Shown here: positions 32,006 to 43,388 of the stretch, one piece after another
How the letters are laid out: each line of letters opens with the position of its first letter
Numbering within the stretch: the stretch's first letter is position 1
NCBI RefSeq assembly: GCF_000830885.1
Contig: NZ_CP006951.1
Location: 1,178,001-1,242,000 of the forward strand
Source: Dehalococcoides mccartyi CG5
GTDB lineage: Bacteria > Chloroflexota > Dehalococcoidia > Dehalococcoidales > Dehalococcoidaceae
Length of the DNA stretch: 64,000 nucleotides
Direction: 5' to 3'
Position numbers and translations under genes: made by a program
Notes under the pieces: model-generated
The model's input: the letters and a program-made list of their open reading frames with translations, nothing else
Database searches by the model: none
Told to the model about the DNA's origin: nothing

Positions 32006-32863
32006 CTATACTACTCCTTGAATCAGCACCTTCTCCTGTAAATCAGGCCTCCACCCATGTTTGTATCCCAAACTTCCAACTAAAGGCGTCGGCTTGCCAA
32101 AGGTTAGGCTGCCTTCTTCCGGAAAGACACTTAATACCTCTTGCTTTATTTCTTCATCACCCCGAAAGTGGTATACATTGCTCATGTATTTTTTGGCCAC
32201 TTCAGCAGCATTTTCCATCTCCATAGGGGTAGGCCGCCGCCAGACATTATTGCCCGCTTTAAAATACGGCAGCAGAACATATGGTATGTCTTTGTTTATG
32301 CTGCTAAGGAATTTGGCCATGTTTTCTGTTTCGTGATAGTCAATATAGCCAGGTATATAAATGGATTCAACTACCAAGTCTATACCGCTCTTGTATACAT
32401 CATAGAAATTTTGCAAAATCTGCTGGTTGGGAACATCGGTGTAATCCAGATGCAACTCCGGGCTGACAGCTTTGATACCAAAGGCTACTTTGTCCGTATC
32501 CTTCAAATCCGGTAGTTCATAACAATTCGTCAAGAGCACATTGTAAGTCCCATACCGTTTGTGGAGCATTTCGGTTATTGCCGCATACTCAGGATCCAAT
32601 GAGGCTTCCTGCCCTTCCAGCAGTACCCTTTCAAAATCCAGTTTATCCAGTTCCTGCATAACCTCGTGTAGACTCAGGAATCTTTCCGGGGGAGCGGCCA
32701 GACCAGGATCATCATTTACATGCTGTCCAACAAAATCCTTGAGCATAGGGCTGTATATTCTCCTTTTGCAGTAACAGCCCCGGCAACGTATATTGCAGCC
32801 CCAAAACATCAGGGATACTTCTTTGGATTCAGGCGTATAGTAAATATGATATATGTTCGTCAA
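32006..32863 (-). CDS. radical SAM protein, rdh-associated (copy 2)
   Basis: This 285-residue protein has the radical SAM cluster motif CNIRCRGCYCK (Cx3Cx2C, about residue 23) after a FWG lead, as in activating-enzyme-type members. Later motifs are RVLLEGQEASLDPEY and VAFGIKAVSPELH. It overlaps the preceding paralogue gene by 4 bases. It is about 30 residues longer at the C-terminus than its paralogue. The substrate is unknown; a role in protein activation or cofactor modification beside rdh genes is possible. Confidence 0.85.
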   Translation of the reverse strand: MTNIYHIYYTPESKEVSLMFWGCNIRCRGCYCKRRIYSPMLKDFVGQHVNDDPGLAAPPERFLSLHEVMQELDKLDFERVLLEGQEASLDPEYAAITEMLHKRYGTYNVLLTNCYELPDLKDTDKVAFGIKAVSPELHLDYTDVPNQQILQNFYDVYKSGIDLVVESIYIPGYIDYHETENMAKFLSSINKDIPYVLLPYFKAGNNVWRRPTPMEMENAAEVAKKYMSNVYHFRGDEEIKQEVLSVFPEEGSLTFGKPTPLVGSLGYKHGWRPDLQEKVLIQGVV

Positions 32864-33603
32864 AATATCTTTACCACCTCATATTTCATTTCCTCGTCTC
32901 CTTTCCAACTATGGACTTTCCCAAGATGTTTCCGGGCTGTCTTCTCAGCAGCTTCCATTTCCTCATGGGTAGGGTGCCGCCACGGATTAAAACCAGACTT
33001 GAAATATGGAAGTATGTGATAGGGAATATCCTTATTTACCTGAGCAATAAATTCTGCAATGTTCTCAGTTTCAGCAATATCTATAAAACCTGGAATAAAT
33101 ACCGAAGCCACTGATGATTTTAGACCGGCCTGATTAAGACTGATAAAATTTGCCAAAACCTGTCTGTTTGATTTACCGGTATACTCTTTATGAATGCTGT
33201 CTGTTACAGCTTTGAGACCGATGGCTATTTCATCAGTATCCTTTAGTGAAGGCAGGCTATAAATATTGCTGCACAGGGTATTGTAACTACTATATCTTTT
33301 GTGAAGGGCTTGGGTAATTTGAGGATACAGCGGGTCAAGCGAGGCTTCCTGCCCTTCCAGCAAAACTTTCTTTATTTCCAGTTTATCCAGCGTTTTTATG
33401 AGATCTTCAAAGCTGATAAATTGTTCAGGGGAATCTGCAATCACGGTTGGTTCTTCAAATGGCAGATGTAAGTGTTCTGACAGCAGAAAATTGTGGGTTT
33501 CTTTTTTGCACAAACAACCAAGACAATTAAAATTACACCCCCAGAAGAACAGGGATATCTCCTTGGTTTCCGGTGTATAAGAAATATGATAAATATTCGT
33601 CAT
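32860..33603 (-). CDS. radical SAM protein, rdh-associated (copy 1)
   Basis: This 247-residue paralogue of the next gene has the cluster motif CNFNCLGCLCK. Shared segments include KVLLEGQEASLDPLYPQI, IAIGLKAVTDSIHKEYTGK and IPYHILPYFKSG. The ATG at 33,603 has AGG at good distance; an ATG at 33,618 is in frame but too close to its ribosome site. Downstream of the CxxCGxCC gene at 33,648 in one likely transcript. Confidence 0.85.
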   Translation of the reverse strand: MTNIYHISYTPETKEISLFFWGCNFNCLGCLCKKETHNFLLSEHLHLPFEEPTVIADSPEQFISFEDLIKTLDKLEIKKVLLEGQEASLDPLYPQITQALHKRYSSYNTLCSNIYSLPSLKDTDEIAIGLKAVTDSIHKEYTGKSNRQVLANFISLNQAGLKSSVASVFIPGFIDIAETENIAEFIAQVNKDIPYHILPYFKSGFNPWRHPTHEEMEAAEKTARKHLGKVHSWKGDEEMKYEVVKIF

Positions 33604-33647
33604 CACTTTTACCTGCATTCCTCAACTATGAAATCAAGCCCATCGTG

Positions 33648-34220
33648 CTAGATATAAACCATCTCAAGTTTTCCATTTTGATTCACTACATACAGGCCGC
33701 CACAATCAGGATTAAAATTCGGCAAAACGGCTCTTACTTGCTCAAGCGTCCAGTTTGCATTAAAATCTTTTTTCTTCTTTTCCCAGCATTTGGTGTCTTT
33801 GGCAGTTCTGGGACGTACATCATGTATCATGCAAGCGTGGATATCCTTATCAAAGAATATGCAGTACCCCCGGTCATAAGTACGGTGGAAAGGTAAATAT
33901 TTGCCTACCATATCAGCTTGGGTTTCCCTGGCCCATAACATATAAAAACCTTTTTCACTTTCGTTTACTACGGCATACCTGCTGGCAAGCTCCAAAGGGG
34001 TCATATTCAAATAACTAGCAACCTTGTTAAATTCGTTAGGGGTAGGTACGCAGGGCTGTCTAAGGCAACAAAACCCGCACTGCTTACAGACCTTCTGACT
34101 ACCAACTATGTTGCCCTTGTGTTTGTGTTCTTCTTCAGTCAGATACTTTTTCAGCTCTGACTTAAGAATGCCAATATCAATTCCTCTATCCATCCGTAGA
34201 GGTTTATTCATTGTGTACAT
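33648..34220 (-). CDS. CxxCGxCC (YkgJ-type) cluster-binding protein
   Basis: This 190-residue protein has CKQCGFCCLRQPC (about 47-59) and, further on, TYDRGYCIFFDKDIHACMIHDVRPRTAKDTKCW, so all cluster cysteines are present. It is intact, unlike the duplicated relatives at 13.2 and 57.8 kb. It lies between rdhB at 34,338 and the radical SAM genes on the same strand. Function unknown; family members bind Fe-S or Zn. Confidence 0.82.
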   Translation of the reverse strand: MYTMNKPLRMDRGIDIGILKSELKKYLTEEEHKHKGNIVGSQKVCKQCGFCCLRQPCVPTPNEFNKVASYLNMTPLELASRYAVVNESEKGFYMLWARETQADMVGKYLPFHRTYDRGYCIFFDKDIHACMIHDVRPRTAKDTKCWEKKKKDFNANWTLEQVRAVLPNFNPDCGGLYVVNQNGKLEMVYI

Positions 34221-34337: not shown

Positions 34338-34610
34338 TTAAGTGGCTGAGCGTCTGCGCCAAGCCAAAGACCAGGCCAGTGCCAGTAGCACAACTGCGGG
34401 CAAACCCAGTACCAGCAGGAACATATTGGCCGCTTCCTGCTCATATTCGGCCACAGAACCGAAATAGTTTTGAATGGTCATAAGCACCAGGAAAAAGCCC
34501 ACAATGCCCAAAAGCCATTCATACCAGGTGAGTTTGACGCCTTTGATTTTCAGCAACCAGGCCAAACCCATAATTCCAGCGCCAGCAATCAGGGCGATGA
34601 AAAACCACAT
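34338..34610 (-). CDS. rdhB: RdhB membrane anchor
   Basis: This 90-residue, three-helix protein has LTWYEWLLG and EYEQEAANMFLLVLGLPAVVLLALAW. The C-terminus is basic (RRRSAT). It follows rdhA by 17 bases. Confidence 0.92.
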   Translation of the reverse strand: MWFFIALIAGAGIMGLAWLLKIKGVKLTWYEWLLGIVGFFLVLMTIQNYFGSVAEYEQEAANMFLLVLGLPAVVLLALAWSLAWRRRSAT

Positions 34611-34627
34611 ATCTAATTACCTCCCGT

Positions 34628-36169
34628 TTATTTGCTGTAACCGCCCTTGGCGGCACCAATAGTACTATCAAAGCCATAGGCCGGTAGGGACATATCCCAC
34701 CATACCTCTGGTGATTCATAAGGTCCGTAACCAAAGGTGTTACTCATACTGGAGAAGAAGCCATTGAACAAACTGGTGGTAGAGACAGTACCGCGGATAA
34801 TGTTATGCATCATGGCGGCTTTGTCTTCACTGAAGGTGCAGTTGGCATAGCACACCCAGCAGCCGCTGGTACCGCCACCCTTGGAGTAGTAGTTACAACC
34901 CGCCATGTCAGGCCAGAAGCCTTTGTGACCGGGATTGCAGAATACTCTGGGTTTGCCGTCTACGTCTGGTACATCCCAAGAAGGTTCATCTGCATGAGAG
35001 ATGGACTGTGACGGACAGGCATCTGCACACTTCTTGCAGGAGTGGCAGAAGCGGAACAGACCGGCATCAATGGGCTTAGTAGGTACTAAGGGGAAATCGG
35101 TCAGCATGGTAAAGGGAATATGGTTAGGACCGGTTTCAGGAGTAAGACAATAGTTGCCCTGACGTGAATTTTCAGCTAGACCGGTTAAGATCATGGCAGC
35201 ACTGAAGTTGGATTCGGAAGTCTGGTGACCGCCGTCTCCGAAAGCTCTCCAACCACCCAGAGCCCGCACAAAGTTAAAGGTGCGTACCTTTAGGGCTTCA
35301 TGCCCATTATCAGCGGTACTGCTGTTGGATTTACTTATAGTGGAATCAAGTGTCTTGGTAGCTTCCATACAAGCACCGGTGGCAATGGTTATCAGCCAAA
35401 GAGGTTTAGAAGGAATAACATGTTTGCCGGCACTTCTGCCGGTACTTCCTTTTCGCAGTTCGGAATAAGGCTGATCAACATTTTCATAGACATAGCGTAA
35501 TTCATCAGATTCCGGCGGATCAGGATTCTGGGGGGTCCATGTCCAATTTCGTACAGCATCAGTGGTTGTTTTCACGAAAAGTTTATTCCGCCATTTGTCT
35601 TCCACTTCGGCATAACCGATAAACATGGCACCGTAATACCGCAAGGCGGCGTACAGCAACCGGGAATTTTCCTCCGGAGTACCCGACCATTTGGGCATAC
35701 CCAGTTCCTCAGGGGTCTTGGCCCAGTCAGCCTCATCTACGATACCAGGATAAGCCCAGGCAGGTGATTCCGTACTGCCGCTGTATCCGGCTTTAAGAGC
35801 CTGATATTTAGTATCAAAACCAGGGGTTTGTTTGGCTATACGATCTGCATCTATCTTTTTCTGGGTAACTGCGGCCGCATCAATAGTTTCAACAGACCTG
35901 TACATGGTAGCAATACGGCGGGAATGAGCCTCATTCTTCCTGTCAAAGCGCTGCATCAAGTCCCAATCAATTTCAGAGGTAGGGTTAAAAAGCTCACGCT
36001 CCTTGACCCACCAGGGACGCTTGGCCGGTGTTACCGAAGAGGATGACATAAGCTCGTCCAAATCATGGAAGACGGGAGTAGTGGCTGCTACAGCACCAAC
36101 ACCTGCTCCAGCCATACCAATGGCTTTCATGAAATCACGGCGGCTTACCATTGAGTGAAACTTACTCAT
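34628..36169 (-). CDS. rdhA: RdhA of the CTF subgroup
   Basis: This 513-residue protein has Tat motif SRRDFMKAIGM and AAAGGAGA upstream. Fe-S motifs: CHSCKKCADACP and a second with C-x11-CWVCYANCTF. The RdhA at 17,619 has the same pattern. No regulator gene is adjacent; the nearest upstream gene is another rdhB on the same strand. Confidence 0.95.
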   Translation of the reverse strand: MSKFHSMVSRRDFMKAIGMAGAGVGAVAATTPVFHDLDELMSSSSVTPAKRPWWVKERELFNPTSEIDWDLMQRFDRKNEAHSRRIATMYRSVETIDAAAVTQKKIDADRIAKQTPGFDTKYQALKAGYSGSTESPAWAYPGIVDEADWAKTPEELGMPKWSGTPEENSRLLYAALRYYGAMFIGYAEVEDKWRNKLFVKTTTDAVRNWTWTPQNPDPPESDELRYVYENVDQPYSELRKGSTGRSAGKHVIPSKPLWLITIATGACMEATKTLDSTISKSNSSTADNGHEALKVRTFNFVRALGGWRAFGDGGHQTSESNFSAAMILTGLAENSRQGNYCLTPETGPNHIPFTMLTDFPLVPTKPIDAGLFRFCHSCKKCADACPSQSISHADEPSWDVPDVDGKPRVFCNPGHKGFWPDMAGCNYYSKGGGTSGCWVCYANCTFSEDKAAMMHNIIRGTVSTTSLFNGFFSSMSNTFGYGPYESPEVWWDMSLPAYGFDSTIGAAKGGYSK

Positions 36170-36920: not shown

Positions 36921-37193
36921 TTAGGCTTTCTTTACCCTTCTAGCAGCCAACTGCCAGGCTACTCCCAGCAGAACAAGTGATGGTAATCCGGTAACCAACA
37001 GGAACATATAAGCCGCTCTAGGTTCATATTCCAGAAAGCTTCCTATAAAATTCTGAACAGTAAGCAGCATCAGTGCAAAGCCTGCTATTCCGATTACCCA
37101 TTCATACCAGGTAAGAGATAGGTTATTCCGTTTTATTAACCAAAACAAACCCAGTATTACGATACCGACAACGGTCCCCATGATAAACCACAT
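36921..37193 (-). CDS. rdhB: RdhB membrane anchor
   Basis: This 90-residue, three-helix protein has LTWYEWVIG. The ATG at 37,193 has GAGGAG 8 bases upstream and gives the same MWFI start as its relatives; the frame is open five codons further. It follows rdhA by 63 bases, wider than usual. Confidence 0.9.
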   Translation of the reverse strand: MWFIMGTVVGIVILGLFWLIKRNNLSLTWYEWVIGIAGFALMLLTVQNFIGSFLEYEPRAAYMFLLVTGLPSLVLLGVAWQLAARRVKKA

Positions 37194-37256
37194 ATAATCA
37201 CTCCTCATTTTGTACTAATATTATATTAGCAAATCAATCGAACTAAACTCCTAAGA

Positions 37257-38654
37257 TTAGTACCTTGAATCAATACCAAACATAGGCTCACCATTTATAT
37301 CCCACCAAGATTCCGGATCTCTGTTGGAATACTTGTAACCAAAGGCCTGATCCATAGTTCTGAAGAACGAATTGAAGGCCGGTGTTACGGCAGTTGTAGC
37401 TTTAATAATGTCATGAATACCTGCTTTGTTTTTCTTTGCAAAGACACAGCTAGCAACACATATGGAACAAAGGCTGGTCAGGTCATACCAGTAACCGCGA
37501 CAATTCATACCGTCACAATGGTAAACTTTCTTACCGGGGTGATTACCGGAGTATTTCACATCCCAGGAAGGAACATCATCCGGATTAAGAGCACCCGAAG
37601 GGCAATGAGAAGCGCAAAGTTTACATGTTTTGCAGAAATTCCAGACACCGGAATCAATCGGTTTATCCGGCACCAATGGCAAATCTGTGATGACACTTCC
37701 CAACCTAGCCATAGTGCCATATTCAGGGAAAACACACTGTCCCAGACGCCCCTGCTCACCCATACCGCTTATAACAGCCAATGCAGGGTTAATACTGGTG
37801 TTATTTACATAGGTGAAACTGCCAAGACCCTGATAGCCTAACATACGGAAAAATCTTTGAGCTCGTATTTGAAACAGCGTGCTCAATGAATAGGAAAGTG
37901 CGGTTGTTGCATCACCCAGCAATGTAGGAGCACGTTTGTTCATCTCCTCTGACATGGGCATAGAAAACACAACTGCATACCTGCATTTCTCAGGTATCAC
38001 ACGTTTTTTATCCGTCTCGTAAGCTTTTTCCACGTTTTCAAAAACAATAGCTTTACCGTCCCAATCTACGCCGTAAACCAGTTTCCTATTATTCTCATTC
38101 AGTTCTACTATGGAAATAGTGCCTGTGCCAAGAAAACGGAAGGCCTGACGAATCATAGCGGTAGTCTCTTCGGGACTGCCATTCCAAGCAGGCAAACCGA
38201 GATCAGATGGGCTGCCCATGCCATAAGGAGTAACTGTAGTATCCCCGAGAAAGTCATGTGAAAAACCTGCCTGCCAGCCATAAGCAGCCGCATCAAAGAG
38301 TGCATAATCACGCAGGGTATAACCAGATTTATCTTCTGCGATCCATTGTTTACGGTCTGCTTTCTGTTTTGCTCCCTGAGCAGCAGCCACATCTTTCCCT
38401 ACAAAACTGGCATACGCAACTTGAGGTATAGTAGTGGCATCATGGCGTTTCAGCATATCCCAATCAATTTCGATGGTAGGAGTATCAACCTCTTTAATCC
38501 ACCATGCCCTCTTATTACTGGAACCTGCAGAGGCCATTTCGTCCAAATCCTTGAAGACAGGGCTACCAGCTGACAATGCCCCAACTCCTGCTCCAACAAA
38601 GCCCAAAGCTTTCATGAAGTCGCGGCGGTTCAGTGTTGAATGACTTTTTACCAT
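37257..38654 (-). CDS. rdhA: RdhA of the CTF subgroup (variant)
   Basis: This 465-residue protein has Tat motif NRRDFMKALGF. The ATG at 38,654 follows GGAGGGTGTA. First Fe-S motif CKTCKLCASHCP; second C-x10-CSICVASCVF, with Val where Pro is usual. It is shorter than the other members. Upstream on the same strand are a response regulator, a DUF1638 kinase and a B12-domain-like protein that probably regulate it. Confidence 0.94.
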   Translation of the reverse strand: MVKSHSTLNRRDFMKALGFVGAGVGALSAGSPVFKDLDEMASAGSSNKRAWWIKEVDTPTIEIDWDMLKRHDATTIPQVAYASFVGKDVAAAQGAKQKADRKQWIAEDKSGYTLRDYALFDAAAYGWQAGFSHDFLGDTTVTPYGMGSPSDLGLPAWNGSPEETTAMIRQAFRFLGTGTISIVELNENNRKLVYGVDWDGKAIVFENVEKAYETDKKRVIPEKCRYAVVFSMPMSEEMNKRAPTLLGDATTALSYSLSTLFQIRAQRFFRMLGYQGLGSFTYVNNTSINPALAVISGMGEQGRLGQCVFPEYGTMARLGSVITDLPLVPDKPIDSGVWNFCKTCKLCASHCPSGALNPDDVPSWDVKYSGNHPGKKVYHCDGMNCRGYWYDLTSLCSICVASCVFAKKNKAGIHDIIKATTAVTPAFNSFFRTMDQAFGYKYSNRDPESWWDINGEPMFGIDSRY

Positions 38655-38787
38655 TACACCCTCCATTAGATTTTTAGTACTCTAATGATATAAAACAGGG
38701 CGTAACGCAAGGGGTAGAAATACATACCAGTTAAGTATTTAATAGTAACTGTTTAGTAAACAGGGGGATATATGCGGAGATTCAAAT

Positions 38788-39465
38788 TTAAACGGGAATA
38801 GAGTACCCGATACCATGATGGTTCAGTATTATTTTAGGATTGGCAGGATCTTCTTCCATCTTTCGCCGAAGACGGCAGATATAATTTTTGATATTATCAG
38901 AAGCACCGGGTATATAATCTCCCCAAAGCACCTCCGATAGTTCGGTTACGGTTATAACCTTGCCTACTTTGGAAACAAGCTGATACAAAAGTCTTCCTTC
39001 AGTCTGGGTTAAAAACAGCCTTTTATTGTTCACATATACTTCCTGAACAGTTCTTCCAAAATGTATATTGGCAGAGGTTACAGATAAATCTTCTTCCATA
39101 AAACGGCGCTTTTTCATAGAGGCCTTCAAACGGGCAATCAATTCCAACTGACGGAATGGTTTTACCAGATAATCATTCGCATCCAGCTCAAAGGCTTTTA
39201 CTAAAATGTTTTCATCTTCACAAACCGTTATGATAATTATCGGGACTAAAGAAAATGCCCGTATTTGCCTTAACACATCAAACCCGTCTATATCCGGCAA
39301 TCCCAGATCCAATAAAACCGCATCCGGATTCTGAGATTCAACTAACTCAATTCCCCCTTTCCCGCTGGTACTAGATAAAACACGGATATTTGACCAAACT
39401 ATCTTCAGGACACTGGAAATAGCATCTATTATCTGGGGATCGTCTTCAATTATCAGTAATTTCAT
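38788..39465 (-). CDS. OmpR-type response regulator
   Basis: This 225-residue protein has canonical receiver motifs LLIIEDDPQ, AVLLDLGLPD, IIITVCEDE and DYLVKPFRQ, and a winged helix ending ILNHHGIGYSI. A GTG at 39,480, right after the kinase stop, is an alternative start. It closely resembles the regulator at 20,959. It lies 134 bases upstream of rdhA at 37,257. Confidence 0.92.
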   Translation of the reverse strand: MKLLIIEDDPQIIDAISSVLKIVWSNIRVLSSTSGKGGIELVESQNPDAVLLDLGLPDIDGFDVLRQIRAFSLVPIIIITVCEDENILVKAFELDANDYLVKPFRQLELIARLKASMKKRRFMEEDLSVTSANIHFGRTVQEVYVNNKRLFLTQTEGRLLYQLVSKVGKVITVTELSEVLWGDYIPGASDNIKNYICRLRRKMEEDPANPKIILNHHGIGYSIPV

Positions 39466-39480
39466 ATTAATTAATGACAC

Positions 39481-41226
39481 TCATACTTTCGGTAAGGTAA
39501 ATGAGAACGAACAGCCGCTATTTTTTACACTGCTAACCCATATCTTCCCTGAATGTTTCTCAATTATCATCTTTGAAAGGGCAAGCCCCAAACCTAATCC
39601 GCTTGGATGCAGTTCGTTGCCGCATCTGTAAGGATCAAAAATATTTTCAAGCTTATCCTCAGGTATACCAGGACCTGAATCTGAAATGGTAAACAAAAAT
39701 TCCTGCCCCGCTAAAGCTGTTTGTATGTTTATTTCAGATCCATTACCAGAGTATTTAATAGCATTTTCAAGCAAATTGGAAACTACCTGTTTAATCCGGC
39801 CTCTGTCTCCCGATACTTCCGGTAATCCGGATTCCAATTTAACTGAAAACTTCTGTTCGTGCAACCTGATTTCAGGCATGAAAAACTCGCTAATTTCGCG
39901 GATAACAGCATTAAAATCAAATGACTCATGAACAAATTTTAAAATACCCACTTCACCCCGAGCCAAATCCAGTAACTCACTTATACGGGTATTAAGTTCG
40001 CTGGCACCGTTATTGATATTATTTACCAGTGATTTGAGTTTATTATCCACTGCAACACTGTGCAATGCATCACTGGCCAAAATTATAGGGGTAAGTGGTG
40101 TTCTTAATTCATGGACAAGTGCCCATGTAAAATAAATCCGCTTCTGGGCTTCTTTTTCGAGCGCTACCCTAAGTTGAAGCTCTTTTTCATAAGATTTTTG
40201 AAGATGGTCCTCGGCTTCCTTCCAAACAGTTATATTCTCCAGCTTACCTGTGAAGTAAGGAACAAATGTTCCGTCATCATCGTATTTGGGCTGGAAACTT
40301 TCCCTCAGCCACAATTTTGTCTGATTTTTATGTCTGACCTGATATTCAATAGAAGCCGGCTGCTGAATACCACGCATCAAGCACTTGGAAAAATATGTAA
40401 ACCTTTCTTCGGATACCCGCAGATAGGTTTCCTTATCTGCATACATAGTGCCTTCGTGGTCTGACATATACAAATATTCAAACTCAGCAGGTGTATATCC
40501 TAATAAATGGGTTATCTGAGGACTGATAAAGAGCAGTTCATTACTGACAACATCCAATTTAAAATATGCTTCGCTTACGGCAGATTCCTTAAGCTCGTTT
40601 CTGGCAAGTATTCGCTTGTCGCCGATGGTTATATCTCTAGATATCAACTCTTTGACACTATCTAATCCATGGAGCAATGTATCATTGAAACTTGAAATAT
40701 CCCCTTCTTTAATCTCAAAGGGCACATCAAACGCTTTTGCAAACGAAGCCACTTCCTCTTCTCTGGGGCTATCAGGTTCAAATTTGTATGCGATTATCTT
40801 TTTCGTGTGGCAGTTATGAATCAAGTTGCCTTCGGCTCTGTTGGCTCCATAAGATGCAAATACTTCTTTTCTAAGAGATGTACAGAGTGTATTCTTGACT
40901 AGCCATTCGCCCTTTGCCAGATAATCCTGAGCAATCTCTGCACCCAACATCATTTCCCAGCAATTATCACCCTTAAGTTTAATGATACGATCTTCATATC
41001 CTGCTAATATCTGCTGTAATTTGGGGTGACAGTTCCCATAAATAAGCAACGCCCCGTCATTATTAAGGCAAGCCTCATTAAAAATATGTTTTAGAAGATC
41101 CGGGGAGATGGAAAACAGGCAGCAGGGTGCCAGAGGATATATTTTATGTTCGCTGGTTACAGGACAAGCCTTGACCTGGTCAAGAATCGAAGCACAGGTG
41201 ATTATTCCGATTTTTTGCTTTTGCAT
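39481..41226 (-). CDS. DUF1638-PAS sensor histidine kinase
   Basis: The 581 residues begin with a DUF1638-like domain (about 1-190; CCLFSISPDLLKHI, ALLIYGNCHPKLQQIL, IIKLKGDNCWEMMLGAEI). A PAS domain (about 220-330) follows, then HisKA with ALVHELRTPLTP (phospho-His about 369) and HATPase (NLLENAIKYS, SDSGPGIPED, GLGLGLALSK). No membrane segments. DUF1638 proteins commonly occur with corrinoid methyltransferase systems, so this kinase may sense a corrinoid-related state. Its start overlaps the B12-domain-like gene by 25 bases. Confidence 0.88.
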   Translation of the reverse strand: MQKQKIGIITCASILDQVKACPVTSEHKIYPLAPCCLFSISPDLLKHIFNEACLNNDGALLIYGNCHPKLQQILAGYEDRIIKLKGDNCWEMMLGAEIAQDYLAKGEWLVKNTLCTSLRKEVFASYGANRAEGNLIHNCHTKKIIAYKFEPDSPREEEVASFAKAFDVPFEIKEGDISSFNDTLLHGLDSVKELISRDITIGDKRILARNELKESAVSEAYFKLDVVSNELLFISPQITHLLGYTPAEFEYLYMSDHEGTMYADKETYLRVSEERFTYFSKCLMRGIQQPASIEYQVRHKNQTKLWLRESFQPKYDDDGTFVPYFTGKLENITVWKEAEDHLQKSYEKELQLRVALEKEAQKRIYFTWALVHELRTPLTPIILASDALHSVAVDNKLKSLVNNINNGASELNTRISELLDLARGEVGILKFVHESFDFNAVIREISEFFMPEIRLHEQKFSVKLESGLPEVSGDRGRIKQVVSNLLENAIKYSGNGSEINIQTALAGQEFLFTISDSGPGIPEDKLENIFDPYRCGNELHPSGLGLGLALSKMIIEKHSGKIWVSSVKNSGCSFSFTLPKV

Positions 41227-41813
41227 AAATATCTGCCATCAATCAATTTCGCCAAATCAGTTAAATCCGCGGGAAAAACAAACCTGGGTAGAAGATCCTT
41301 TAAAGATTCGTCCAAATTAAAAACTACTCCGCCTGCGAATATATCGTCGGTTATTTTCAATAATTCATCTGAATAGGATTGAATGCTGTAAATAAACTGA
41401 AATGCAGAAAAACTAAAAACTATGCTATCCGGCTTTTTACAATTCCATTTATTAATGAGCAATTCCAAATCGGTATTGGCGGTTATACCGTGAAGTTCAG
41501 TTTTAAATCCTTTTGTCTCCAGATATGTCTGAACCAGTAAAGCTCCTACAGTTTGAAGTGCTGAAAAATAGCACACCGAAACCGGTTCGGCATTCAAATA
41601 CGCCTTATCAAGAGTTCCCAACCTTTGGTTAACATGCTCTATAATATATAAAATATGTGACGGGCGAATTTCCCGGTGATTCCATGAGTATATCGTATTA
41701 TCAAGTAAAGAAACCAGCTCCGGCTGGCTCATTTGAGATATCAAATATCCTTGATCATTTGCTGCAGAATGGCAAAGGCCCTTCAAATTATCAGAATTCA
41801 CGGTTTCCACCAT
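41202..41813 (-). CDS. B12-binding-domain-like protein lacking the cobalt-ligand His
   Basis: The 203-residue layout is that of a small corrinoid protein: a helical N-terminal half (about 25-85) and a Rossmann-like half (VCYFSALQTVGALLVQTYLETKGFKTELHGITANTDLELL, about 95-134). The DxHxxG motif that places a His on cobalt is absent (SALQTVG). GGAGG lies 5 bases before the ATG at 41,813. Translational overlap with the DUF1638 kinase suggests a joint sensor. The assignment rests on fold-like pattern, so it is moderate. Confidence 0.6.
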   Translation of the reverse strand: MVETVNSDNLKGLCHSAANDQGYLISQMSQPELVSLLDNTIYSWNHREIRPSHILYIIEHVNQRLGTLDKAYLNAEPVSVCYFSALQTVGALLVQTYLETKGFKTELHGITANTDLELLINKWNCKKPDSIVFSFSAFQFIYSIQSYSDELLKITDDIFAGGVVFNLDESLKDLLPRFVFPADLTDLAKLIDGRYLCKSKKSE

Positions 41814-42413: not shown

Positions 42414-43388
42414 TTATTCCAAAATATTCAGATTAGACTGCAAAAAAGTCGACAGATTGACACTTTGATTGATAATTTTAAACTTGCGCCTGATATTCTC
42501 ACGATGACGGTTTATGGTAGCGGCCGAAACACCCCTCAAACTGGCAATTTCTTTGGTAGTTAGCCCGTTTTTGATCATATTGGAAACAGCAATCTCTACG
42601 GGTGACAGGCAGTTACAAACTCCAGTTAGGCTTGTCACAAAGGAGGAACTTATTCCCTCCAAATTCGAAAGAATCAGCTGGGTATAGATCTTCTGTGAAG
42701 GAGGAAGTTGAGCCTCCAATGACAGGAGAATAGGTTTTAATATCTTGTCAACGTTCTGGTTGATATCATTATATATGTCTTGCCGAGCAGCTTCACCCCG
42801 AGACAAAATAACCTTCAAAGCCGTATTTGCTTCCTGTAACGCCTGTCGCTCCAGTTTAAGCTGGCGGTTAATCTCCTCCAATTCCTCATCTATGGCAATA
42901 CGTCCAGCTAAATTGCCAATCTGCACGGCAACGTTATTGAGCAAAATCCGTTCCTCTTTAAGGAATGGGCCTTCGTAAATAACAGGGCGCTCCTCGGTGT
43001 AGTAAATAGTACACTCACCCATCAGTTCGCCATTTAACAAAACCGGAGAGGATTGGTTCCATTTGCTAATCTGAAAACCGGTGGATAAAAAGGAGTGTCC
43101 TCTAAAAACTATTTTAGCTTTGGTGATATCAGGATACTGCCAGGCATTAGGTAGAAAATTGGAAAGCTCAAACAGGAATCGGTTTAAAGAGGAATGGTGG
43201 CGCTCTGCCAGCTGAAAAATGCCATACAGGCAGTTCAGTTCTTTAACCCGCTCCCGCAAAGCTATTTCAACTTCATCAGTTTGACCTTCAACAGTTAGCG
43301 GAATCGGCTTCAGACAAGAACCAGTATCCTGAGGCTTGCCCGATACAGGGTAAACTGCCGGAGAATTATTATTCTCTTGAAGATTCAT
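42414..43388 (-). CDS. LuxR-type regulator with a GAF-like sensor half
   Basis: This 324-residue protein has an N-terminal ligand-sensing-like region (about 45-170), a coiled coil (about 170-215) and a C-terminal LuxR HTH (LSPVEIAVSNMIKNGLTTKEIASLRGVSAATINRHRENIRRKF, about 262-304). No receiver and no kinase partner. It is downstream of nothing obvious and may once have controlled the vanished rdh pair at 42.2 kb. Confidence 0.78.
   Translation of the reverse strand: MNLQENNNSPAVYPVSGKPQDTGSCLKPIPLTVEGQTDEVEIALRERVKELNCLYGIFQLAERHHSSLNRFLFELSNFLPNAWQYPDITKAKIVFRGHSFLSTGFQISKWNQSSPVLLNGELMGECTIYYTEERPVIYEGPFLKEERILLNNVAVQIGNLAGRIAIDEELEEINRQLKLERQALQEANTALKVILSRGEAARQDIYNDINQNVDKILKPILLSLEAQLPPSQKIYTQLILSNLEGISSSFVTSLTGVCNCLSPVEIAVSNMIKNGLTTKEIASLRGVSAATINRHRENIRRKFKIINQSVNLSTFLQSNLNILE

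What the first reader, a model, noticed from the sequence alone, without database searches (positions are those of the whole stretch)
37257..41813. Possible corrinoid-state sensor: B12-domain-like protein, DUF1638 kinase and regulator upstream of rdhA
A protein with a B12-domain-like layout but no cobalt-ligand His overlaps a cytoplasmic kinase with an N-terminal DUF1638 domain, followed by an OmpR regulator and rdhAB. DUF1638 is usually found with corrinoid methyltransferases. The set could sense corrinoid or methyl-group supply and gate dehalogenase synthesis. The fusion of DUF1638 to a histidine kinase looks unusual.
Basis: partly seen in the sequence, partly recalled or inferred. Interest (0 to 1): 0.7.

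Follow-up and report, generated by a model that had tools for sequence, protein, structure and literature searches.

The report
Vitamin-B12-derived sensor controlling dehalogenase genes
Bacteria that breathe chlorinated pollutants appear to switch on individual dehalogenase genes with a cytoplasmic sensor built from two vitamin-B12-enzyme parts: a B12-carrier protein that has lost its cobalt-binding histidine, and a four-cysteine domain fused to a signalling kinase. This gives a concrete, testable candidate for how they detect the pollutants.

Summary
Window 41813-41202 (-) encodes a protein with the cobalamin-domain fold and no cobalt-ligand His. It overlaps a soluble DUF1638-PAS-HisKA-HATPase kinase, followed by an OmpR-type regulator and rdhAB. 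It is a recurrent cassette: three copies in this genome and 17 across nine Dehalococcoidaceae genomes. The B12-like gene and the DUF1638 gene are paired one to one, and the 14 cassettes I read lie beside rdhA. One copy lies in what appears to be the published dcpA island of Dehalogenimonas NSZ-14. In other Chloroflexota, DUF1638 kinases or GGDEF cyclases sit in operons with an intact corrinoid protein (DxHxxG present) and a URO-D protein. This suggests the dehalogenase sensors derive from a corrinoid-methyltransferase signalling module that lost URO-D and the His. DUF1638 carries three invariant Cys. The fourth conserved position is Cys in all 15 signalling fusions aligned and His in all 14 stand-alone proteins. 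The B12-like subunit evolves fastest and has no conserved metal ligand. I favour a cytosolic two-protein receptor (an RdhS variant), with specificity in the B12-like subunit and probably an organohalide signal. Corrinoid supply is less likely but not excluded. New variant of a known kind; the ligand is unproven.

The parts
41202..41813 (-). B12-like subunit: corrinoid-protein homologue (helical cap plus Rossmann domain) without the DxHxxG cobalt ligand
   Evidence: PF02310 E 1.6e-4; AF2 pLDDT 86.8 and Foldseek hits to cobalamin-binding proteins; hhalign E 1.3e-6
41544..41561 (-). residues 85-90 ALQTVG in place of the cobalt-binding loop DxHxxG
   Evidence: column comparison of 14 His-less and 3 intact proteins
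41319..41333 (-). retained GGxxF motif (residues 161-165), invariant in all 17 proteins aligned
39481..41226 (-). soluble sensor histidine kinase (RdhS type): DUF1638-PAS-HisKA-HATPase_c
   Evidence: Pfam hits
40678..41226 (-). DUF1638 input domain; Cys11, Cys36, Cys66 and Cys89 each follow a beta strand in the model
   Evidence: alignments A7, A8, A11; AF2 pLDDT 91.9; Cys/His pattern
40267..40533 (-). PAS domain of the kinase
   Evidence: PF08447 E 1.6e-7
39487..40131 (-). HisKA and HATPase_c catalytic core (H-box LVHELRTPLTP)
38788..39480 (-). OmpR-type response regulator (RdhP type)
   Evidence: PF00072 1.7e-25, PF00486 2.9e-16
38667..38787 (-). 121-bp gap upstream of rdhA; candidate target of the regulator
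   Evidence: partly conserved with L061 and L067; no operator demonstrated
37257..38666 (-). rdhA, reductive dehalogenase catalytic subunit; 72-74% identical orthologues also sit next to the same cassette in two other genomes
   Evidence: PF13486 7.9e-34, TIGR02486 3.2e-83
36921..37208 (-). rdhB, membrane anchor
   Evidence: size, hydrophobicity and position behind rdhA; no Pfam family above cut-off

Best explanation
The cassette encodes a cytosolic two-component system (an RdhS/RdhP variant) that controls the adjacent rdhAB genes. Its receptor has two parts. One is a corrinoid-carrier protein that no longer has a cobalt ligand, and the other is a kinase with an N-terminal DUF1638 domain holding a four-cysteine site. 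Shown here: anatomy, fold, pairing, linkage to rdhA, kinship with corrinoid-protein/URO-D/DUF1638 signalling operons, loss of the His, and retention of the Cys site. Inferred: the B12-like subunit docks on the DUF1638-PAS input of the kinase. It receives a small ligand in its former corrinoid cleft, most likely the organohalide used by the linked dehalogenase. Ligand binding changes kinase activity, and the OmpR-type regulator then turns on rdhAB.
For: Pairing is one to one in 17 of 17 places in nine genomes; none of the other 147 genomes of the order has the B12-like gene. In the 14 cassettes read, an rdhA lies within a few kb of the kinase module, usually abutting or divergent. Three of the eight rdhA-linked HisKA kinases of this genome are of this type and the other five were read as PAS-type. 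The B12-like and DUF1638 distance matrices correlate (Mantel r 0.95, or 0.89 on a thinned set). Sensor clades follow RdhA clades across genera. The B12-like subunit is the least conserved member of the cassette: mean identity within orthologous cassettes 57%, against 69% DUF1638, 77% regulator and 85% RdhA. It has no conserved His, Cys or Met ligand. One copy lies within the published coordinates of the dcpA (1,2-dichloropropane dehalogenase) island, with matching gene content. Precedent: the His-shifted B12-fold SCHIC domain of AppA binds heme and docks on a linker helix of the PAS regulator PpsR (PMC9144470).
Against: No ligand, complex or phosphotransfer has been shown for any member. Fast change of the B12-like subunit could reflect relaxed constraint rather than specificity. 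Sensor-RdhA congruence is partly expected from plain linkage. The Desulfobacterales pair (L105) has no rdhA on its short contig, so the pair is not strictly tied to dehalogenation. The Ser/Thr and GlyGly motifs that hold the nucleotide tail of cobalamin are kept, so a cobalamin ligand is not excluded.
Confidence: 0.55

Rival explanations
1. Corrinoid-supply sensor: the B12-like protein binds cobamide base-on or without a protein ligand, and the kinase allows rdhAB expression only when cobamide is available.
For: B12 fold; Ser/Thr and GlyGly tail motifs kept in 14 of 14; close operon kinship with true corrinoid proteins; Dehalogenimonas are generally corrinoid auxotrophs and RDases need cobamides (PMC13390414).
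Against: Asp and His lost in all 14; up to three diverged copies per genome, each with its own rdhA; other rdhA genes of the same genome use PAS-type kinases.
Confidence: 0.22
2. Redox or metal sensor in DUF1638: the four-cysteine site binds Zn or an Fe-S cluster and reports redox state (for example Co(I)/Co(II) or low-potential electron supply). The B12-like protein is only an adaptor.
For: Cys11, Cys66 and Cys89 invariant in 29 diverse proteins and a fourth Cys in all signalling fusions; stand-alone DUF1638 is genetically tied to RamA-like B12 reactivation.
Against: A general redox cue would not need gene-specific paralogues; the adaptor would not need to be the fastest-changing part.
Confidence: 0.18
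3. Vestigial module: the B12-like protein is a decaying remnant, and the PAS domain alone senses.
For: High divergence; one kinase copy in this genome is interrupted by a stop codon and one Dehalogenimonas copy is truncated after DUF1638.
Against: Open frames beside or overlapping the kinase and a confident fold are kept in nearly all copies across two genera and in a Desulfobacterales MAG.
Confidence: 0.05

Closest known systems
RdhS/RdhP two-component systems of Dehalococcoides and Dehalogenimonas (PMC13390414)
   Same: soluble histidine kinase plus OmpR-type regulator beside rdhAB
   Different: input is DUF1638 plus PAS, with an obligate B12-like partner gene; the paper reports no sensory domain or partner in the passages read and calls the cue unknown
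Corrinoid proteins of methyltransferase systems (MttC type; 4jgi from Desulfitobacterium hafniense)
   Same: helical cap plus Rossmann domain; GlyGly motif; operon kinship in other Chloroflexota
   Different: no Asp-x-His-x-x-Gly, no methyltransferase partner, encoded with a kinase
[quoted passage not shown]
   Same: B12-fold proteins acting as sensory partners of PAS-containing regulators; SCHIC has lost cobalamin binding
   Different: SCHIC keeps a shifted His and binds heme; partners are transcription factors, not DUF1638 kinases
Stand-alone DUF1638 proteins (PF07796), for example Phaeobacter PGA1_c13340 (PMC5764234)
   Same: same domain with three invariant Cys; link to B12-dependent methyl transfer
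   Different: fourth position is His in all 14 stand-alone proteins aligned and Cys in all signalling fusions; no kinase
mec cassette of dichloromethane degraders (MecA kinase plus MecB corrinoid protein; PMC9768040)
   Same: histidine kinase encoded next to a corrinoid protein in a halocarbon gene cluster
   Different: MecA is reported to use a PocR domain; MecB is annotated as a corrinoid protein of the methyltransferase set

Membership tests
RdhS/RdhP two-component system | HisKA/HATPase kinase plus OmpR-type regulator next to rdhAB | tested here: met
RdhS/RdhP two-component system | controls transcription of the adjacent rdhA | not testable with these tools
   needs DNA binding or expression data
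DUF1638 (PF07796) | profile match above curated cut-off | tested here: met
   40.8 bits, cut-off 27
DUF1638 (PF07796) | three invariant cysteines | tested here: met
   C11, C66, C89 in 29 of 29
DUF1638 (PF07796) | fourth conserved position His, as in the stand-alone proteins (a subgroup trait, not a requirement of the family) | tested here: not met
   Cys in 15 of 15 fusions, His in 14 of 14 stand-alone proteins
Cobalamin-binding corrinoid protein (B12-binding PF02310 / B12-binding_2) | fold: helical cap plus Rossmann domain | tested here: met
Cobalamin-binding corrinoid protein (B12-binding PF02310 / B12-binding_2) | profile match above curated cut-off | tested here: not met
   21.9 bits, cut-off 32.1
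Cobalamin-binding corrinoid protein (B12-binding PF02310 / B12-binding_2) | DxHxxG cobalt ligand motif | tested here: not met
   0 of 14
Cobalamin-binding corrinoid protein (B12-binding PF02310 / B12-binding_2) | Ser/Thr and GlyGly motifs near the nucleotide tail | tested here: met
   14 of 14 each
Cobalamin-binding corrinoid protein (B12-binding PF02310 / B12-binding_2) | binds cobalamin | not testable with these tools
   needs purified protein
Corrinoid methyltransferase system | methyltransferase (MtxB, URO-D or similar) partner in the operon | tested here: not met
   no such gene in the window cassette or between the genes of the other cassettes read
SCHIC-type sensor | binds heme through a shifted His | tested here: not met
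   no conserved His anywhere in the 14 proteins; heme binding itself not testable

The most novel reading that the evidence does not exclude
DUF1638 with a corrinoid-carrier partner is a previously undescribed signalling input module ('corrinoid signalling module'). It is coupled to histidine kinases in Dehalococcoidia and to GGDEF cyclases in other Chloroflexota. In organohalide-respiring bacteria the carrier lost its cobalt ligand and became a direct, gene-specific organohalide receptor.
Probability: 0.4. Interest if true: 0.85.

Novelty: new variant of a known kind. Interest (0 to 1): 0.62.

Why it matters
How organohalide-respiring Chloroflexota sense their substrates is open: a 2026 survey states that the kinases lack membrane helices and that the cue is unknown (PMC13390414). 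This work gives a defined receptor candidate, a named partner subunit and a four-cysteine site. It also points to a cassette beside what appears to be the characterised 1,2-dichloropropane dehalogenase gene, so the question becomes directly testable. It would show a B12-enzyme part reused as a pollutant receptor, and could yield biosensors for chlorinated solvents.

Tried and rejected
PDB sequence search with the B12-like protein: no hit. Foldseek with the DUF1638 model against PDB and viral models: no convincing relative, TM about 0.3, so its fold class stays open. Search for relatives of that Desulfobacterales MAG was not possible. Upstream DNA alignments: partial conservation before rdhA, little before the B12-like gene, a 40-bp identical run in the divergent promoter of a sister cassette; no operator proven. 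My check for corrinoid genes near stand-alone DUF1638 found them in only 9 of 52 loci with about 1.5 kb flanks and narrow profiles, so 'usually found with corrinoid methyltransferases' was not confirmed here. Considered and rejected: assembly artefact (17 copies in nine genomes), chance overlap of unrelated genes (one-to-one pairing).
Full report
OBSERVATION. The window is G000:C1:1178001-1242000 of a 1,362,151-base, single-contig genome. Its many rdhA genes and gene content fit Dehalococcoides; the exact strain is not shown by the tools. On the minus strand lie, in order, a 203-aa protein (41202-41813), a 581-aa kinase (39481-41226), a 230-aa OmpR-type regulator (38788-39480), rdhA (37257-38666) and rdhB (36921-37208). 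The first two genes overlap by 25 nt and the next two abut, which suggests coupled translation. Pfam assigns DUF1638-PAS_3-HisKA-HATPase_c to the kinase, and a sub-threshold B12-binding match to the small protein.

FOLD. An AlphaFold2 model of the small protein built on 17 homologues is confident (pLDDT 86.8, pTM 0.82). Foldseek against the PDB returns cobalamin-binding proteins at the top: 4jgi from Desulfitobacterium hafniense, photocobilins, MttC, AerR, MetH and CarH. TM-scores are near 0.5 over the whole chain. HHalign against true corrinoid proteins from related genomes gives E 1.3e-6 and is collinear across cap and Rossmann domain. The DUF1638 model is also confident (pLDDT 91.9) but has no convincing structural relative.

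RECURRENCE. The genome has two more cassettes of the same kind, at C1:147.7k and C1:190.8k. In 156 genomes of the order, the B12-like protein occurs 17 times in nine genomes, all in the window's family, and each time directly next to a DUF1638 signalling gene. The 14 cassettes that I read in full have rdhA nearby, co-directional or divergent. Of 17 HisKA kinases in this genome, eight lie near rdhA by my reading of the coordinates; three of these carry DUF1638 and the other five were read as PAS-type.

ORIGIN. Outside this family the picture is different and informative. In G121, G122 and G086 (same order) the DUF1638-kinase is preceded by a corrinoid protein with both B12 domains and by a URO-D protein. 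In G061 corrinoid and URO-D homologues are also detected beside the kinase by profile search, in broken frames. In another Chloroflexota family (G365, G166, G518, G211) the same three-gene order ends in a DUF1638-GAF-GGDEF diguanylate cyclase. The corrinoid proteins there keep the cobalt-binding motif, for example DYHxLG. The URO-D proteins do not show the H-x-C motif of zinc-thiol methyltransferases at the matching place; that motif is recalled from general knowledge, and the sequences are. A Desulfobacterales MAG holds the His-less pair without URO-D. The simplest reading is that a corrinoid-protein/URO-D/DUF1638 signalling module gave rise to a reduced His-less pair, which Dehalococcoidaceae use beside rdhA.

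RESIDUES. At the DxHxxG positions all 14 His-less proteins lack Asp and His, while 10 of 14 keep the Gly. The Ser/Thr of the next motif and the GlyGly are kept in 14 of 14. No His or Cys is conserved across the whole family, nor any Met outside the start region. In DUF1638, Cys11, Cys66, Cys89 and Gly64 are invariant in 29 diverse proteins. A fourth residue, after strand 2, is Cys in all 15 fusions (at one of two neighbouring columns) and His in all 14 stand-alone proteins. In the model the four residues each follow one of four successive strands, so they probably meet at one edge of the sheet.

CO-EVOLUTION. Distance matrices of the B12-like protein and DUF1638 correlate at r 0.95 (0.89 on a thinned set); B12-like against RdhA gives 0.80 (0.49 thinned). 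Sensor clades match RdhA clades across two genera: window with L061 and L067; L059 with L062 and L066; L004 with L068; L005 with L069 and L070. The B12-like subunit is the fastest-changing of the cassette's proteins compared. This fits a specificity-bearing receptor but could also reflect weak constraint.

LINK TO A KNOWN ENZYME. L062 is G031:C1:1391000-1405000. G031 is 2,092,789 bp. The 2026 Dehalogenimonas survey gives NSZ-14 a size of 2.09 Mb, the only genome in its table of that size, and places the dcpA island at 1,384,297-1,407,259 bp. It lists dcpA, dcpB, rdhP, rdhS and RNR in the island, the bile-acid cotransporter in the figure of these clusters, and dcpA lengths of 1,449-1,464 bp (PMC13390414). 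L062 contains the B12-like gene, the DUF1638 kinase, the regulator, RNR, a multi-span membrane protein that I take for the cotransporter (the neighbouring cassette L059 has a Pfam SBF match) and an rdhA of 482 codons plus stop (1,449 bp). So the kinase of the dcpA island is very probably of this type. The identification of G031 rests on size and coordinates, not on a name.

MECHANISM. Shown: a conserved, linked, soluble two-protein input with an intact kinase and regulator. Inferred: the B12-like protein binds the DUF1638-PAS part, as the B12-fold SCHIC domain of AppA binds a linker helix of the PAS regulator PpsR (PMC9144470). Loss of the cobalt ligand together with gene-specific copies points to a new ligand in the old cleft, most likely the organohalide. 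Cobamide without a protein ligand remains possible because the tail motifs are kept. The four-cysteine site may hold Zn or an Fe-S cluster and tune or carry the signal.

LITERATURE. Only three held papers mention DUF1638; the two I read do not describe it in signalling. In Phaeobacter a DUF1638 gene is needed for B12-dependent methionine synthesis and co-occurs with a RamA-like reactivase; its function was left open. A 2025 paper repeats the reactivation idea. The library is incomplete, so absence there is weak evidence of novelty.

VERDICT. A real, recurrent and undescribed (in the held literature) receptor arrangement within a known kind of system, the RdhS/RdhP two-component systems. Its kinship is established, its pairing is strong, and its ligand is unproven.

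Noticed in passing
L108-L111 (Chloroflexota family f71): Three-gene operons: intact corrinoid protein, URO-D protein, DUF1638-GAF-GGDEF diguanylate cyclase; suggests corrinoid state feeding c-di-GMP signalling.
   Followed up: partly
L004:6572-8413: The kinase of the second cassette of this genome is split by one in-frame TAA, while the same gene is intact in the congener (L068); this copy is probably inactive.
   Followed up: partly
L005/L069/L070 between the B12-like gene and rdhA: A 40-bp run identical in three species in the divergent promoter; candidate operator of the OmpR-type regulator.
   Followed up: partly
window 42414-43388 (-): LuxR/GerE-type regulator with an unassigned N-terminal region, just upstream of the cassette.
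   Followed up: no
window 32006-34220 (-): Two tandem radical SAM proteins resembling glycyl-radical activases and a CxxCxxCC protein beside a second rdhAB (34338-36169); possible maturation genes.
   Followed up: no
L105 (Desulfobacterales MAG): His-less B12-like gene overlapping a DUF1638-PAS-GAF sensor outside Chloroflexota, no rdhA on the short contig.
   Followed up: partly
L063 (G029): Cassette in which DUF1638 ends at 203 aa without a kinase and next to rdhA; apparently decayed.
   Followed up: no
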